Source: Acetobacterium sp.
Lineage (GTDB): Bacteria > Bacillota > Clostridia > Eubacteriales > Eubacteriaceae
Direction of reading: 5' to 3'
DNA length: 6,165 nucleotides
Assembly: GCA_022013395.1 (NCBI GenBank)
Contig: JAKLQL010000406.1
Location: 1 to 6,165, forward strand
In this document: positions 1 to 6,165 of the stretch, one piece after another
Layout of the letters: each line of letters starts with the position of its first letter
How positions within the stretch are numbered: position 1 is the first letter of the stretch
The notes under the pieces: generated by a model
What the model was told of the DNA's origin: nothing
Database searches by the model: none
Seen by the model: the letters and a program-made list of their open reading frames with translations, nothing else
Program-made: the position numbers and the translations under genes

Positions 1-270
1 GACGGTTTGACCATTATGTTTTTGAGTCGCTTTGGCCTGGAAGTTACTGAAGGTACCAAAGATCATCTGGCATCCCATTACCAGAGTTTTCTGGAACAGA
101 TCGAAGCGCTGCCGGCAGAAGAACAGAAAAAATATAACTTGAACCTGTCCATGGACAAGGTCAACAATACCTATAAGGAACATATCGGAGCGATGGAAGA
201 ACATTTGAATCAACTAAATGCCGGGGCACAGTCTGAAGACTATGAAGAAGAATGGGAGCAGGAAATGTGA
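1..270 (+). CDS. C-terminal fragment of an unrecognised protein, cut by the window start
   Basis: The frame is open from base 1 to the TGA at 268-270, giving about 89 residues. A TTG at 7 and an ATG at 16 could be starts, but no Shine-Dalgarno precedes either, so this is most likely the 3' end of a longer gene. The visible part is hydrophilic and predicted helical: a segment around residues 18-60 contains the run LEQIEALPAEEQKKYNLNL, followed by a charged helix and a very acidic tail ending EEEWEQEM. No catalytic motif, signal peptide or membrane segment is seen, and I do not recognise the family. It lies upstream of the polyvalent gene of a conjugative element, so an element accessory protein is plausible, but no function is assigned. 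Its last seven codons and stop align in frame with those of the fic gene downstream (22 of 27 bases identical over 247-273 versus 1294-1320). Confidence 0.7.
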   Translation, partial: DGLTIMFLSRFGLEVTEGTKDHLASHYQSFLEQIEALPAEEQKKYNLNLSMDKVNNTYKEHIGAMEEHLNQLNAGAQSEDYEEEWEQEM

Positions 271-272
271 TT

Positions 273-329
273 CTGTTTCCCGAGGAAACAGGAAATAGAA
301 AAACATAATCTTGTTTCTCGAGGAAACAA
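273..329 (+). repeat. Hairpin repeat array, copy 1 (two 19-nt units)
   Basis: There are two 19-nt inverted repeats. Unit 1 (273-291) is CTGTTTCCCGAGGAAACAG, with perfect 8-bp arms around CGA. Unit 2 (311-329) is TTGTTTCTCGAGGAAACAA, with 8-bp arms including one T.G wobble around the same CGA. They start 38 bp apart and are separated by an AT-rich spacer (292-310) similar to the spacers of the second array. The outermost pair covaries, C-G in unit 1 and T-A in unit 2, so pairing is conserved. The function is unknown: either RNA hairpins ahead of the terminator or protein-binding palindromes. Confidence 0.85.
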
Positions 330-351
330 AATACAGAAAACACATTACAAT

Positions 352-376
352 GAGATTCAAGCGGATCTCTTTTTTT
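352..376 (+). terminator. Intrinsic terminator after the first gene
   Basis: The stem GAGATTC (352-358) pairs with GGATCTC (363-369), including one U.G wobble, around the loop AAGC. It is followed by seven T (370-376). It lies 82 bp after the stop of the first gene, behind the two hairpin repeats. It is homologous to the terminator at 1435-1458. The short 7-bp stem suggests moderate strength. Confidence 0.75.
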
Positions 377-531
377 CAATCTCAATGACAAGCTCATTCT
401 GATGCATGGTGAACAGGCTGAAGGGAGGTTTTTTAAAAATAGATAATAAGGATGGCATGAATTGTGTTATCATTAGCTAAACATTTTACCGTTGTCAAAG
501 AAAGTATGCTAAGAAAGTGAGGGATGATCGA
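377..531 (+). other. Leader region between terminator and fic; orphan RBS and short decayed frame
   Basis: Bases 377-420 match the leader of the polyvalent gene, but its ATG start is replaced here by CTG (418-420). From that CTG the frame runs 20 codons to TAA at 478-480 and shows no similarity to any protein I recognise. A very strong Shine-Dalgarno-like AAGGGAGG (421-428) has no start codon at usable distance. A 7-codon ATG frame (457-480) has an AAGGA four bases upstream and could be a leader peptide, but support is weak. GATAAT (442-447) resembles a -10 box but lacks a recognisable -35. No convincing promoter for fic is seen. Confidence 0.45.
519..523 (+). promoter_or_regulatory. Ribosome binding site deciding the fic start
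   Basis: GAGGG ends eight bases before the TTG at 532. The alternative GTG at 517, in the same frame, has no purine-rich site upstream. This site and the family-typical N-terminus (MKIEQLLKEI) favour TTG 532. Confidence 0.55.
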
Positions 532-1412: not shown

Positions 1413-1434
1413 AATACAGGAAACACATCGCAAG

Positions 1435-1458
1435 GAGATCCAATCGGATCTCTTTTTT
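1435..1458 (+). terminator. Intrinsic terminator between fic and the polyvalent gene
   Basis: GAGATCC (1435-1441) and GGATCTC (1446-1452) form a perfect 7-bp stem around AATC, followed by six T (1453-1458). It lies only 46 bp before the start of the polyvalent gene, with no recognisable promoter in between. That suggests conditional readthrough rather than a simple gene end. Confidence 0.8.
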
Positions 1459-1504: not shown

Positions 1505-4500
1505 ATGAATTCAAGAGAAATACAATATTTTCCCCAAATAGCGCAAGAAAATTTTCAGACACCTGAAAACTGGATGACCTTTCTGGAACAGTCGGCCTGG
1601 CATTATAAGCATACCTTTTACAATCAGATGCTGATCGTGTTCCAACGACCGGATGCGACCGCAGTAACCGCAATCGAGGCATGGAATAAAAAACTTAATC
1701 GAACAGTCAACGTCGGTGCAAAGCGAATTCTGGTGCTGGATGATCAGCTGAAGTATGAATTTAAAAATGTGTTCGATGTGAGTGATACTCACAAACGTAA
1801 TCCGGATGGCCCGGATTTTAAATTGTGGAGCCGGGAAAATGTGGATGAAGTAGAGATTATTAAACGCGCAACTGAACATTACCAGGAAACACGCTCAAAG
1901 CATACCCTGCCATACTACATTATGACGGAAATGAAAGTGCGAAATAAAGATCAGTTTGAGTATTTTAAGGCTGAGATCATGGAGTCGAACAGACTTTATC
2001 TCAGGAATCTGGATGTGAGTGACTTTGCCACTCTGTATGATAACAGTGTGATTTATCAGATTTTATCCCGATGTGGCTATAATCCCAGGGATTATTTTAA
2101 TCCGGAAGATTTTGCACAAATAAAAAACATAGGGAACTTTAAATCGCTGATATTTTTGGGTAATAATGTAACGAGTACCACCAAACCCTTTCTCATTGAA
2201 ATGGGAAAACTGGTGCAAACCATTGAAATGGAACAACTGAAAAACAAAATAGAAGGAGAACTAAAAAATGAGCAAGAACCAGGAAACATTCAAACCTATG
2301 GAATTGACCTATCACCAGGAAGGGGAGTTTCTGACCCCGGATATCAAACCCCTGACTCCACCCAGTCAGGAAATCGGGAAGTACGGGAACTTAAGGAACC
2401 AGTATCTGAAGGAATTCAAGCCGGATCTGTTGATGGAACTGATCTTCGACGACAAGATCAACGAACACCTGGTGGAAGTGGATCAGGCAGCCAGGCGCCG
2501 ACTGGAGCTGATCTTGGCGGGGATGATGAAAAATCATCCGGCCCCGGACAAGAAAACCCAGCCCCTGGAATGGGCGGGTCATATGAACAACCTTCAGAAC
2601 CTGGCCAACGAGATCGTTCTTTCGGAACTCATTTACAACTAAGCCTGTTTAAGCCTGAACAGGAGCCAATAAAAACAAACCAAAAAGCGGAGAGCCAACA
2701 GCCCTCCGCTTTTTATATGCCCCAACATGATATTGATGTCATTCTTCGCAGTGCCGGCAATGACCGGGATAGTCAGTTGCATATTGTGGCACATTATAAG
2801 AAGCAGCTGCCGACCGAAGACAACGTGGCCTTTCTAAGATCAGAATATCGCACCGGTGGCAAAGGCTTTTACATCGATGAAAAAGAAGTGGCGGTCTGGT
2901 TTGATAAAGACGGTATGCAGGTCGCCCAGGGAAGCTCAGTTCAGAGCAATTTTATGAAAACTACCCTGTCCTGGGAACAGGTTGAAAATCGGATCGGGGA
3001 GCTGCTGGAAAGTGGTCTTTATATTGGTCAGGAACACCTGGATAAAGTCGATAGCTTTGAACGCAAAGAACTGGCAAATAAACTCTGGTATCTGCATCAG
3101 GATCGAGCCGGGGGATTTTTCATGGAGGATGAGATTTTCCAGGGAGGATTTCCGGATAGCACGAAACGAATTGGCGAACTTTATACTGATCCGGATAAAT
3201 TGGATGAAATCATTACTGGACTGGACGGGTTTACCCAAAAATATAAAGAAGACCGATCCATTTTGCGTTTTCACTTTCACAAGCTAGATGAACTATTAAG
3301 CCGACTCAGTGATTTAAAGCGGGAGCGCCGGGACTATCAGGTGAACGGGTTTGATTATCAGGAACCGGCGATGTTTATCACCCAGGATGAAGTGGATGCG
3401 GTTTTATGCAAAGGTAGTGGTATGTCCGATGGAAAACAACGGATCATCAACTATTTTAGCGAAAATCATTCACCACAGGAAAAAGCGAATTTTCTTAAAA
3501 ATGAATATGCAACAGGTGGCAAAGGGATTTTGTTACGCCGGGATGAAGCAGAAAAGAGCATCCTTTTATCCTGGCCAAAGGTGGCAAAGCGTATCGATGA
3601 ACTGATGGCCCAGGGACGTTATGTGATTGATGAAGCAAAACGGGTTAAACCTACCGAACAGAAACCAGAAAAGCCAGCAATTCCGCTGGTCGATATTCAT
3701 GATCTACTAAAAAACGTGACCCCGGACGACTACACCCGGCCAGTAATTTATGATTTATTGCCCGAAACCAAAAATAATGCAGAGTTTGGCGAAGTGATTA
3801 AAAACACCTATTTATTCAGCGAAGTTCCGGTACTCGGGAATCTCACGGATGCCTACCGGCAGCATCTTGATCAGAGTGGGATTCGCTTTGAAAAAACATC
3901 GGATCCGTCGATTCATCATTTTTTATCCTGGACGGAAATTGCCGGGGAAGTCAAACAACTCATTGAAGCCGGTCAATACGTCGTGCCAGGAGCATATCAG
4001 GAAATGGACCCGGAACCCTATGTCGAAAGCTTTGGGGAAACTCGGTCATTTATAACCTTTGATCGAGATCCGGAAGATGCTAAAGATCGGGAATTGATCG
4101 ATATATCCGCAGCGGATCAGGATGAAGGGGATCACAACGACCAGAAAAAAACGGATAGCAATACCCTTAAACCGGAAAATTATAAAATTACTGCTGATGT
4201 TTTGGGTGAAGGCTCACCACGACAAAAGTTCAAAGCCAATGTATTGGCAATTCAAACCCTGCAAGAGATTGAAAAAGAAAAGCGGATGGCCACGCCGGAT
4301 GAACGGGTGATCTTATCCCGATATGTGGGTTGGGGTGGGCTGCCACAGGCATTCGATTCGGATAACATCCATTGGAAACCGGAAGTTCAGGAGTTAAAAG
4401 AATTGTTATCTGAGGATGAATACAGTTCGGCCAAGGGATCAACACTAAATGCCCATTATACAGCGCCGGTTATTATCAAAGCCATGTACGGCGCACTGGA

Positions 4501-6165
4501 GCAGATGGGCTACTACAAAGGGAATATCCTGGAACCAGGGATGGGCGTGGGTCATTTCTTTGGCTTATTGCCAGATGCCATGAAGGATTCGAAGCTTTAT
4601 GGCGTGGAGCTGGATGAGATTACTGGTCGGATCGCCAAAGCCCTTTATCCGGAAGCAAACATATCCGTGTGCGGGTTTGAGAAAACCCAGTTCTCCAATA
4701 ACTTTTTTGATGTGGCCATCGGGAATGTCCCCTTTGGTGATTATCAGGTTTATGATAAAGCTTATGACAAACACAGTTTTATGATCCATGATTATTTCTT
4801 TGCCAAGTCTCTGGATAAGGTACGGAATGGGGGCGTGTTAGCATTTATCACCAGTAAGGGCACGATGGATAAGAAGTCGCCCATGGTCAGGCAGTATCTG
4901 GCTGAACGGGCGGAATTAATTGGAGCCGTGCGCCTGCCGAATAATGCCTTCAAAGCGAATGCCGGCACGGAGGTAACATCGGACATCATCTTCATGAAGA
5001 AGCGGGATCGGAAGGTTCTGGCAGCGGATGAACCCTGGGTACATCTGGGAATGGATGAAAATGGGATCCCCATGAATCAGTATTTCATTGATCACCCGGA
5101 AATGATCCTGGGGGAGATGCAAATGGTGTCCGGACGGTTCGGTGAGGAATCGGCCTGCCTGCCGATCCCCGGGAACGATCTGAAGCTTGCAATGGAAAAA
5201 GCCCTGGGCAATCTGGATTATCAGTTTCCTCAAGTGGAAATTGAAGCTGAAAGCCTTATGGAAGATGACCGGGTTACCATCCCCGCCGATCCGGATGTGG
5301 CCAATTACAGTTATACCATCGTTGATGATGAACTTTACTACCGGGAAAATTCTGTAATGAACCGGATGGATAAACCCGCAGCCACAACGAGCCGGATTAT
5401 GGGATTGATCGGTCTCCGGGACTGCACCCGGGAACTGATTGCTCTACAACTGGAAAACGGCAGTAATTGGGATATTGAAAAGAAACAGGAAGAACTACAC
5501 ACCTTATACGATGCTTTTGCCAAGAAACACGGTCTGATTAACGCCACCGGGAACCGCCGGGCCTTTGATGAGGATGGATCCTATTGGCTTTTATGCGCTC
5601 TGGAAGTTCTAAATGAAGACGGCACCTTTAAAGAAAAATCGGACATCTTCTATAAGCGCACCATTCGCACCAATGAGGTGGTCACGGCGGTAGATACTTC
5701 CAATGAAGCGCTGCTGGTTTCCATCAACGAAAAAGCCAAGGTCGATCTGGACTATATGAGCAGTTTAACCGGAAACCCCCGGGAAGTTATCATTAACGAT
5801 CTGGAGGGACTGATCTTCCGGGATTTTGGCAATCTGGATCCGGAGCAACTCCCCCAAAACCTATCCGATGCTACGGACATTCCCTTTGTCACCGCCGATG
5901 AATACCTGTCCGGAAATGTCCGCCGGAAGCTGGATCATGTCCGTCAGCTATTTGAAAACCTACCCAACGATCAGGCTCAAACCCTTTTACCAAACATCAG
6001 TGCACTGGAAGCAGCTCAGCCCCGGGATCTGGAAGCATCGGAAATCGAAGTACGGTTGGGAGCAACCTGGATCGATCCCCGCTATATCCAGGATTTCATG
6101 GTTGATACCTTTAAGCCGGCAACCTATCTGGTTAACAGCGAATCCATCAAGATCCATTATTCCCC
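1505..6165 (+). CDS. Giant polyvalent mobile-element protein: ArdC-like, repeat modules, N6-adenine methyltransferase (helicase part beyond window)
   Basis: One uninterrupted frame of 1,553 codons runs from ATG 1505 off the window end. Residues 20-79 (PENWMTFLEQ... FQRPDATA ... GAKRILVLD) match the ArdC-like ssDNA-binding N-terminus of polyvalent proteins in Tn1549-type elements. Residues 178-205 (LSRCGYNPRDYF) continue that family region. Residues 255-400 are a Gly/Ser/Pro/Gln-rich, probably disordered linker that overlaps tnpV and holds QLSLF (378-382). Three related modules follow at about 401-507, 621-708 and 745-827. The methyltransferase part shows YVGWGGLPQAFD (940-951), NAHYTAP (982-988), the S-adenosylmethionine site LEPGMGVG (1009-1016) and the catalytic NVPF (1074-1077), then the family-typical ITSKGTMDKK and GTEVTSDI. 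YLSGNVRRKL (1467-1476) and the Trp1522 region (WIDPRYI) are typical just before the SNF2-like helicase, which is expected beyond the window but not seen. The likely role is protecting, modifying and unwinding element DNA during transfer. Family assignment is from recalled homologues. Confidence 0.92.
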   Translation, partial: MNSREIQYFPQIAQENFQTPENWMTFLEQSAWHYKHTFYNQMLIVFQRPDATAVTAIEAWNKKLNRTVNVGAKRILVLDDQLKYEFKNVFDVSDTHKRNPDGPDFKLWSRENVDEVEIIKRATEHYQETRSKHTLPYYIMTEMKVRNKDQFEYFKAEIMESNRLYLRNLDVSDFATLYDNSVIYQILSRCGYNPRDYFNPEDFAQIKNIGNFKSLIFLGNNVTSTTKPFLIEMGKLVQTIEMEQLKNKIEGELKNEQEPGNIQTYGIDLSPGRGVSDPGYQTPDSTQSGNREVRELKEPVSEGIQAGSVDGTDLRRQDQRTPGGSGSGSQAPTGADLGGDDEKSSGPGQENPAPGMGGSYEQPSEPGQRDRSFGTHLQLSLFKPEQEPIKTNQKAESQQPSAFYMPQHDIDVILRSAGNDRDSQLHIVAHYKKQLPTEDNVAFLRSEYRTGGKGFYIDEKEVAVWFDKDGMQVAQGSSVQSNFMKTTLSWEQVENRIGELLESGLYIGQEHLDKVDSFERKELANKLWYLHQDRAGGFFMEDEIFQGGFPDSTKRIGELYTDPDKLDEIITGLDGFTQKYKEDRSILRFHFHKLDELLSRLSDLKRERRDYQVNGFDYQEPAMFITQDEVDAVLCKGSGMSDGKQRIINYFSENHSPQEKANFLKNEYATGGKGILLRRDEAEKSILLSWPKVAKRIDELMAQGRYVIDEAKRVKPTEQKPEKPAIPLVDIHDLLKNVTPDDYTRPVIYDLLPETKNNAEFGEVIKNTYLFSEVPVLGNLTDAYRQHLDQSGIRFEKTSDPSIHHFLSWTEIAGEVKQLIEAGQYVVPGAYQEMDPEPYVESFGETRSFITFDRDPEDAKDRELIDISAADQDEGDHNDQKKTDSNTLKPENYKITADVLGEGSPRQKFKANVLAIQTLQEIEKEKRMATPDERVILSRYVGWGGLPQAFDSDNIHWKPEVQELKELLSEDEYSSAKGSTLNAHYTAPVIIKAMYGALEQMGYYKGNILEPGMGVGHFFGLLPDAMKDSKLYGVELDEITGRIAKALYPEANISVCGFEKTQFSNNFFDVAIGNVPFGDYQVYDKAYDKHSFMIHDYFFAKSLDKVRNGGVLAFITSKGTMDKKSPMVRQYLAERAELIGAVRLPNNAFKANAGTEVTSDIIFMKKRDRKVLAADEPWVHLGMDENGIPMNQYFIDHPEMILGEMQMVSGRFGEESACLPIPGNDLKLAMEKALGNLDYQFPQVEIEAESLMEDDRVTIPADPDVANYSYTIVDDELYYRENSVMNRMDKPAATTSRIMGLIGLRDCTRELIALQLENGSNWDIEKKQEELHTLYDAFAKKHGLINATGNRRAFDEDGSYWLLCALEVLNEDGTFKEKSDIFYKRTIRTNEVVTAVDTSNEALLVSINEKAKVDLDYMSSLTGNPREVIINDLEGLIFRDFGNLDPEQLPQNLSDATDIPFVTADEYLSGNVRRKLDHVRQLFENLPNDQAQTLLPNISALEAAQPRDLEASEIEVRLGATWIDPRYIQDFMVDTFKPATYLVNSESIKIHYS
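2253..2258 (+). promoter_or_regulatory. Ribosome binding site of tnpV inside the polyvalent gene
   Basis: AAGGAG lies nine bases before ATG 2268. It is the strongest Shine-Dalgarno associated with a gene start in the window. In the overlapping frame the same bases encode Glu-Gly-Glu. It supports independent translation of tnpV. Confidence 0.8.
2268..2642 (+). CDS. tnpV: TnpV-family transposon protein, overprinted on the polyvalent gene
   Basis: This is a 124-residue protein in a different frame of the same strand as the giant gene. It matches the TnpV family, first named in the clostridial element Tn4451 and common in related mobile elements; its molecular function is not established. Family signatures are IGKYGNLRNQYLKE (36-49), a helix VDQAARRRLE (71-80), PLEWAGHMNN (99-108) and the end ELIYN (120-124). 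It is complete, with its own AAGGAG and a start context ctaaaaaATG. Its stop (2640-2642) lies 40 bp before a terminator-like hairpin. The overlap is total: residues about 255-380 of the giant protein are read from the same DNA in the next frame as a low-complexity linker. Because tnpV gives the well-ordered, family-matching product, it is probably the constrained frame here. The protein is soluble, helical and basic in its centre. The identification rests on recalled family members. Confidence 0.85.
   Translation: MSKNQETFKPMELTYHQEGEFLTPDIKPLTPPSQEIGKYGNLRNQYLKEFKPDLLMELIFDDKINEHLVEVDQAARRRLELILAGMMKNHPAPDKKTQPLEWAGHMNNLQNLANEIVLSELIYN
2636..2650 (+). other. Sliding-clamp binding motif QLSLF in the polyvalent protein linker
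   Basis: Residues 378-382 of the giant protein read Q-L-S-L-F, an exact match to the bacterial beta-clamp binding consensus QL(S/D)LF. It sits in the disordered linker, the usual setting for such motifs, and spans the tnpV stop codon. This is a motif match only; binding is inferred. Confidence 0.55.
2682..2714 (+). terminator. Terminator-like hairpin inside the polyvalent gene, after tnpV
   Basis: AAAAAGCGGAG (2682-2692) and CTCCGCTTTTT (2704-2714) are perfect 11-bp complements around an 11-nt loop. This gives a GC-rich inner stem followed by five T, and the five A on the other side would let it act on the minus strand too. It starts 40 bp after the tnpV stop and is inside the open frame of the giant protein, near residues 394-404. 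It fits a tnpV terminator. It should be masked when ribosomes translate the giant frame. Confidence 0.7.
2705..3985 (+). other. Region encoding three related modules of the polyvalent protein
   Basis: Copy A (2705-3025, residues 401-507) and copy B (3365-3628, residues 621-708) share the order Q-x-(E/D)-(V/I)-D-x-(I/V)-L, then FL(R/K)xEY(R/A)TGGKG (GGKG at 451-454 and 671-674), then LSWxxVxxRIxEL and G-x-Y-(V/I). Copy C (3737-3985, residues 745-827) keeps the LSWxEI...L-x-x-GQYV end but lacks GGKG. These resemble the large-polyvalent-protein-associated domains of mobile-element proteins; the exact family is not assigned. The copies are diverged at DNA level, so the duplication is old. Confidence 0.65.

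What the first reader, a model, noticed from the sequence alone, without database searches (positions are those of the whole stretch)
2253..2650. Complete tnpV gene overprinted inside the giant polyvalent gene
A 124-codon TnpV-family gene with its own AAGGAG lies wholly within another long open frame on the same strand. The giant frame stays open through all 125 codons, and both products make sense: TnpV is ordered and family-matching, while the other frame gives a Gly/Ser/Pro/Gln-rich linker joining two conserved parts. I recall the linkers of related Tn1549-type proteins containing a stretch like PDEMGRPDEQ, which is what a TnpV motif such as PMKWVGRMNN would give when read one frame over. 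The overlap may therefore be ancient and conserved. Linker composition would then be a by-product of tnpV.
Basis: partly seen in the sequence, partly recalled or inferred. Interest (0 to 1): 0.8.

Follow-up and report, generated by a model that had tools for sequence, protein, structure and literature searches.

The report
Ancient gene nested in giant gene
In a mobile DNA element of an Acetobacterium bacterium, a complete small gene, tnpV, lies wholly inside a giant gene but is read one base out of step; the same nesting was found in 94 of the 99 loci assessed, this one included, so one stretch of DNA likely makes two proteins and has probably done so since early in this family's history.

Summary
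A 124-codon TnpV gene (PF14198, E 9.6e-28) at 2268-2642, with AAGGAG at 2253-2258, lies wholly inside the giant DarB-like frame (ATG 1505 to beyond 6163), same strand, frame +1. It is neither chance nor decay. Searching with the giant's N-terminal domain, 94 of 99 assessed loci (window included) carry TnpV nested in the hinge, 94 of 94 in the same frame; the query came from nested giants, so rarer forms may be under-sampled. Nine of nine hand-picked plasmid giants agree, including Listeria and Enterococcus. In close relatives the fast-evolving codon position switches inside tnpV: pN/pS there is 0.21 in the tnpV frame and 1.8 in the giant frame, against 0.21 in the giant's N-domain; 20 pairs from other clades repeat this. 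The giant frame nevertheless stays open, and tnpV's synonymous sites are biased in ways that keep the hinge open and hydrophilic. Shine-Dalgarno matches are kept. The hinge is thus largely, not wholly, a by-product of tnpV. No annotated locus examined (nine, in eight records) lists both genes in full; literature searches found no description. Translation of both frames and TnpV's function are untested. The kind is known (mobB, comS); the breadth appears new.

The parts
1505..6165 (+). Giant DarB-like gene (5' part; runs off the window; GTG alternative start at 1496)
   Evidence: Open frame 1496->6163; PHROG DarB-like antirestriction E 1.5e-190 over residues 874-1538; Pfam Eco57I methylase E 2.8e-6
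1505..2266 (+). Conserved N-terminal domain of the giant (weakly ArdC-N-like)
   Evidence: Alignment of this domain matched 78 of 291 class genomes; PF08401 ArdcN matched by 1 of 20 members at E 0.037 only; some relatives annotated 'ArdC-like ssDNA-binding'
2253..2258 (+). Shine-Dalgarno AAGGAG of tnpV, 9 nt before the ATG
   Evidence: Sequence; a match of 5 or more nt at 75 of 88 nested tnpV starts against 160 of 792 control windows
2262..2264 (+). In-frame TAA just upstream of tnpV; argues against reaching tnpV by a frameshift from the giant
   Evidence: Sequence
2268..2642 (+). tnpV, 124 codons, frame +1 relative to the giant
   Evidence: PF14198 E 9.6e-28; AlphaFold2 mean pLDDT 89.5, beta hairpin and four helices
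2268..2642 (+). Hinge of the giant protein encoded by the same bases in the giant frame
   Evidence: Open across tnpV in the window and in 94 of 99 assessed loci, window included; FILMVWYC fraction 0.129 in hinges against 0.337 in N-domains
4115..6109 (+). DarB-like methylase region of the giant
   Evidence: phrog_10089, residues 874-1538

Best explanation
A complete tnpV gene lies inside, and one frame over from, the hinge of a giant DarB-like gene, and the two proteins are likely made from one mRNA, the giant by ribosomes that would read straight through and TnpV by ribosomes that would start internally at tnpV's own Shine-Dalgarno site. Shown: both frames are open; TnpV belongs to PF14198; the nesting and its frame recur in divergent elements; selection in the overlap acts mainly on the TnpV frame; the giant frame stays open; the Shine-Dalgarno match is kept. 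Inferred: that both frames are translated; that the hinge is a flexible spacer whose exact residues matter little; that the giant's hinge was written over a pre-existing tnpV (TnpV is the folded family with stand-alone members) and the pair has mostly stayed locked since; that TnpV is an accessory protein of element mobility or early establishment. The published suggestion of an excision role rests on claimed homology with lambda Xis and was neither confirmed nor excluded here.
For: Pfam match and containment. N-domain-first samples: 94 of 99 assessed loci nested, 94 of 94 in frame +1; the TnpV model gave 105 hits of 15 bits or more among 6857 six-frame segments of those loci, 102 in the hinge in frame +1 and 3 TnpV genes upstream of giants. 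Substitutions by giant codon position in 7 Acetobacterium sequences: N-domain .087/.069/.256, overlap .208/.089/.063, downstream (6 of the 7) .099/.073/.243; pN/pS N-domain .206, overlap tnpV frame .206, overlap giant frame 1.80. Same switch in 20 non-Acetobacterium pairs that share no locus: overlap .172/.093/.067; upstream, 17 of those pairs.082/.049/.207. T before AA/AG/GA at tnpV third positions: 0 of 1897 nested, 70 of 389 non-nested (circular in part). Synonymous third-base identity raised over the giant's N-domain and non-nested TnpVs. Shine-Dalgarno kept. TnpV and N-domain distances correlate, r 0.77 over 2701 non-independent pairs of 74 loci.
Against: No expression data. The N-domain query A3 was itself built from 20 nested giants, so TnpV-less giants may be under-sampled, and some of the 99 loci are near-identical copies. 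The 88-gene stop count used genes chosen as nested, so it is circular in part. Exceptions: L144 has a giant-frame stop inside tnpV, L185 is a broken giant, L188 and L241 are giants without TnpV, L240 is a 299-codon protein; in three loci counted as nested (L139, L170, L180) the giant frame ends within about 130 nt after TnpV, and L180's TnpV is truncated. L010, L011 and L016 have TnpV just upstream instead. 20 of the 94 have TnpV scores under 40 bits. 84 of 129 PF14198 hits in a class sample lie elsewhere, so TnpV does not need the overlap. At 25-40 percent TnpV identity most of the raised third-base identity outside stop contexts follows from base composition (.362 seen.340 expected). TnpV has no known fold, so its function is a guess. 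The direction of overprinting is not resolved.
Confidence: 0.82

Rival explanations
1. Chance or decaying tnpV-like frame inside the giant gene.
For: Degraded TnpV copies exist elsewhere (hits with internal stops).
Against: PF14198 E 9.6e-28, purifying selection in the tnpV frame, nesting in 94 of 99 assessed loci, kept Shine-Dalgarno.
Confidence: 0.02
2. tnpV is the real gene and the giant is not read through it; the N-domain and the methylase-helicase part are separate proteins and the giant frame is open by accident.
For: pN/pS 1.8 in the giant frame of the overlap; one locus with a giant-frame stop in tnpV (L144); nested genes' own codons permuted stay open in 10.7 percent of cases on average; in Monoglobus the table lists only the downstream part of the giant.
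Against: With non-nested codon usage the mean P(open) is 0.0067, yet the frame is open in 94 of 99 assessed loci; tnpV third positions are biased in the direction that keeps it open; conserved giant parts lie in one frame on both sides.
Confidence: 0.08
3. TnpV is made as the tail of a frameshifted N-domain product and not by internal initiation.
For: In 28 of 88 nested loci the tnpV frame is open for more than 120 nt upstream of the match, up to 456 nt.
Against: In this window a TAA begins 6 nt before the ATG; 20 of 88 have an in-frame stop within 30 nt upstream of the match and 46 of 88 within 60 nt; Shine-Dalgarno matches are kept.
Confidence: 0.05
4. The hinge is itself a selected functional segment of the giant and shapes TnpV rather than the reverse.
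For: Reduced synonymous divergence in tnpV and G-rich giant first positions; a recurrent hinge motif of the type DLHxERGLPD (15 of 88 nested, 0 of 18 non-nested).
Against: Giant-frame pN/pS 1.8; hinge identity to the window 60-97 percent against 81-97 percent for TnpV in the same six relatives; L010, L011 and L188, which lack a nested TnpV, have short hinges.
Confidence: 0.05

Closest known systems
RSF1010 mobB inside mobA/repB (IncQ plasmid)
   Same: Small mobility gene located in a larger multifunctional gene and translated in a different frame (PMC2200642, passages read)
   Different: Shared sequence was not tested; here the host gene is a DarB-like giant and the nested gene is TnpV, recurring in many divergent elements
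comS inside srfAB (Bacillus subtilis)
   Same: Small out-of-frame gene embedded in a large gene (PMC8160284, one passage read)
   Different: A chromosomal competence gene; the overlap here lies in mobile elements, and tnpV has stand-alone relatives
TnpV of Tn4451 and Tn6104
   Same: Same family name; PMC3158075 (passages read) gives a Tn6104 product 48 percent identical to Tn4451 TnpV and repeats the postulated excision role
   Different: Described as separate genes of elements with large serine recombinases; no nesting in the passages read. Their sequences were not compared here
DarB-like polyvalent proteins
   Same: Adenine methylase, with SNF2 ATPase in relatives, as described for polyvalent proteins of phages and conjugative elements (PMC5512222, passages read)
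   Different: A second gene in the linker is not described in the passages read, and the word 'overlapping' does not occur in the main text

Membership tests
TnpV (PF14198) | Match above Pfam's gathering score over the profile | tested here: met
   96.8 bits against cut-off 27, profile 1-111 of 111
Lambda Xis-type excisionase | Recognisable relation to Xis or its fold | tested here: inconclusive
DarB-like methylase-helicase polyvalent protein | Adenine methylase of the DarB type | tested here: met
   phrog_10089 E 1.5e-190, Eco57I E 2.8e-6
DarB-like methylase-helicase polyvalent protein | SNF2 ATPase in the same polypeptide | not tested
   The window ends before that region; relatives are annotated SNF2-related
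DarB-like methylase-helicase polyvalent protein | ArdC-N domain at the N terminus | tested here: inconclusive
   1 of 20 members at E 0.037; annotation of some relatives only
Same-strand nested overlapping gene pair | Both frames open and conserved in homologues | tested here: met
   94 of 99 assessed loci, same frame in 94 of 94
Same-strand nested overlapping gene pair | Frame-specific selection in the overlap | tested here: met
   Codon-position switch; for the giant frame only openness and composition show constraint
Same-strand nested overlapping gene pair | Both proteins expressed | not testable with these tools
   No ribosome profiling or proteomics held
Tn1549-type element | Tn1549 backbone genes around the window | not tested

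The most novel reading that the evidence does not exclude
One early overprinting event joined the parts of a mobile-element giant across a tnpV gene, and the pair has been locked for most of the family's history: one of the widest and deepest same-strand nested gene pairs in bacteria. tnpV writes the hinge of these 2000-3000-residue antirestriction-type proteins, and giant-translating ribosomes passing over tnpV's start would set TnpV dosage.
Probability: 0.35. Interest if true: 0.85.

Novelty: new variant of a known kind. Interest (0 to 1): 0.74.

Why it matters
Long protein-coding overlaps are disallowed by standard annotation programs outside viruses (abstract passage of PMC8665328). This one recurs in divergent mobile elements, including plasmids of Listeria and Enterococcus, and both partners belong to described families, so it offers many natural replicates for testing how two proteins share one sequence. 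It points to a concrete annotation fault: of nine annotated nested loci examined (eight records), none lists both genes in full; six list the giant without tnpV, and three list tnpV while the giant is missing or starts about 3 kb late (the gene tables are incomplete by their own description). It also cautions that residue conservation in the hinge of these giants need not mean function of the giant.

Tried and rejected
Chance frame or decay: rejected. Sequencing error: unlikely. Frameshift fusion: disfavoured. Function of TnpV by sequence or fold: no useful match in the PDB; this does not show a new fold. Ancestral state by trees: nested and non-nested TnpVs interleave, 6 changes on the best tree and 3 forced by well-supported branches; in the N-domain tree TnpV-less L188 and TnpV-upstream L010 group together inside nested diversity, but they are long branches that meet, so loss is suggested, not shown. 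The 18 non-nested TnpVs may include some from broken giants (L072 and L095 sit among nested ones in the tree). Origin by insertion of a TnpV-bearing element: PMC9815147 (passages read) reports TnpV-bearing cargoes inserted in snf2 genes of Streptococcus suis elements; not pursued. Internal promoter: three promoter-like sites in 1300-2700 against 2.4 expected. RNA families: none at gathering scores. Structure at the tnpV start: no better than shuffles. Viral-contig search with the giant: no relative confirmed. Literature: searches gave no description of TnpV nested in another gene; TnpV is in 20 held papers, of which I read passages of three and saw the rest as listings only; open-access texts only.

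Full report
What is there. The window has one giant + strand frame from ATG 1505 (GTG 1496) past its end and, wholly inside it, a 124-codon frame at 2268-2642 with ATG, TAA and AAGGAG at 2253-2258. The small protein is TnpV, PF14198, E 9.6e-28, full profile. The giant matches DarB-like antirestriction proteins (PHROG E 1.5e-190) and the Eco57I methylase family. The window is G000:C359, a whole contig of a 666-contig genome. Same-genus loci coincide with named Acetobacterium contigs (for example G004:C19:22749 and L058 of A. dehalogenans), so the host is an Acetobacterium.

Conservation in the family. With the window's own N-domain as query, 12 of 40 family genomes had a match. The seven same-genus loci L003-L009 carry TnpV, 80-98 percent identical to the window's, in the corresponding place and frame; in L009 the giant's 5' end is interrupted by an insertion, but tnpV lies inside what remains. 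L012, L013 and L015 of another genus carry it nested at about 38 percent identity, L019 carries a weak TnpV-like frame there (20.5 bits), and L010, L011 and L016 carry TnpV directly upstream of the giant instead. The weak short hits L017, L018 and L020-L022 were not assessed.

Conservation beyond. Two samples were then drawn with an alignment of N-domains (A3), which ends before tnpV but was made from 20 giants known to be nested: 78 of 291 class genomes and 30 of 398 phylum genomes had hits. Loci came: 82 class entries (window included, its duplicate L165 dropped) and 34 new phylum entries (three duplicates dropped). Contig ends removed 4 and 1, and 12 phylum hits covered under 90 model positions; none of those 12 had TnpV. 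Of 78 and 21 assessed, 75 and 19 have TnpV nested, 94 of 94 in frame +1. The five exceptions are L144 (giant-frame stop inside tnpV), L185 (broken giant), L188 and L241 (giants without TnpV) and L240 (a 299-codon protein). In L139, L170 and L180, counted as nested, the giant frame ends within about 130 nt after TnpV. Some loci are near-identical, so 94 is not a count of independent cases; after removing close copies over all sources 88 distinct nested TnpVs remain. Twenty of the 94 have scores under 40 bits, but the model is specific on these loci: 105 hits of 15 bits or more among 6857 segments, 102 in the hinge in frame +1 and 3 upstream TnpVs. Nine plasmid loci picked by hand from giant matches (L286-L294; Virgibacillus, Enterococcus, Listeria, Ruminococcus, Monoglobus, Subdoligranulum) are all nested in frame +1, at 25-148 bits; two of them (L289, L294) were already known to hold TnpV there. 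TnpV itself is wider: of 129 near-full PF14198 hits typed from the capped list (196 class genomes), 45 lie in the position after a giant N-domain and 84 elsewhere.

Selection. In seven Acetobacterium sequences the substitution rate by giant codon position is .087/.069/.256 in the N-domain and .099/.073/.243 downstream (six of the seven), but .208/.089/.063 in the overlap, so the free position becomes tnpV's third. Uncorrected pN/pS is .206 for the giant's N-domain.206 for tnpV, 1.80 for the giant frame in the overlap and .889 for the remaining frame. Twenty pairs from other clades that share no locus repeat the switch. The giant frame is constrained in two ways: it stays open, and tnpV third positions are biased to G and against T even where no stop threatens (1078 G and 229 T of 2170 nested four-fold sites; 205 G and 94 T of 539 non-nested). 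The hinge has 12.9 percent FILMVWYC residues against 33.7 percent in the N-domain and 20.3 percent in the same frame of non-nested tnpV. The absence of giant-frame stops in the 88 genes is descriptive, since they were selected as nested; 0 of 18 non-nested genes are open. Permuting the nested genes' own codons leaves 10.7 percent open, and recoding them with non-nested usage 0.67 percent.

How it likely works. A Shine-Dalgarno match of 5 or more bases precedes 75 of 88 nested tnpV starts (8 of 88 have none), against 160 of 792 control windows, and in the window a stop begins 6 nt before the ATG, so internal initiation is the likely route. The giant would be read straight through. TnpV is predicted as a beta hairpin plus four helices (pLDDT 89.5) with no solved relative found. 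Its postulated excision role comes from the literature (PMC3158075, passages) and was not tested.

Annotation. In the plasmid gene tables, nested loci list either the giant (L286, L287, L288, L290, L291, L293) or TnpV (L023, L025, L289; the last two in one record), never both in full. In Monoglobus L289 the giant frame runs 6986-14662, but the table lists TnpV and an SNF2-related protein only from 10097. These tables are incomplete by their own description, so this is an indication, not a survey.

Literature. Searches for TnpV, for overlapping or nested genes with mobile elements, and for polyvalent proteins gave no account of this overlap, within open-access papers and mostly from listings. 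Known nested pairs of the same kind are mobB in mobA/repB (PMC2200642, passages) and comS in srfAB (PMC8160284, one passage).

Verdict. Translation of both frames, TnpV's function, the age and the direction of overprinting remain to be shown.

Noticed in passing
window 242-422 and 1289-1509: The Fic-family gene (517-1317) is bracketed by two copies of a spacer (about 180 and 220 bases, 79-88 percent alike per block, including the last codons of the gene before each copy), as if it were a cassette slotted in by recombination.
   Followed up: partly
window 1432-1455: Terminator-like hairpin with a T-rich tail about 50 bases before the giant's start codon, with a near-copy of its sequence at 349-372; possible attenuator before the giant gene.
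   Followed up: no
L010, L011, L016: TnpV lies directly upstream of a giant instead of inside it; the hinge of L010 and L011 is short.
   Followed up: partly
L289 6986-14662: Giant frame of 2559 codons whose listed annotation begins about 3.1 kb late, beside an annotated TnpV.
   Followed up: partly
L085, L100, L120 and similar loci, tnpV start: Non-nested tnpV genes whose first part is overlapped by an upstream frame open for about 120-156 codons in the same relative frame as the giant; reason unknown.
   Followed up: no
L009 and L014: In one relative the giant's N-domain is split by an insertion with frames of 109 and 311 codons (transposase-like by eye, not tested).
   Followed up: no
weak hits: Proteins of about 300 codons match the giant's N-domain alone, several on the same contig as a giant; possible solo versions of the domain.
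   Followed up: no
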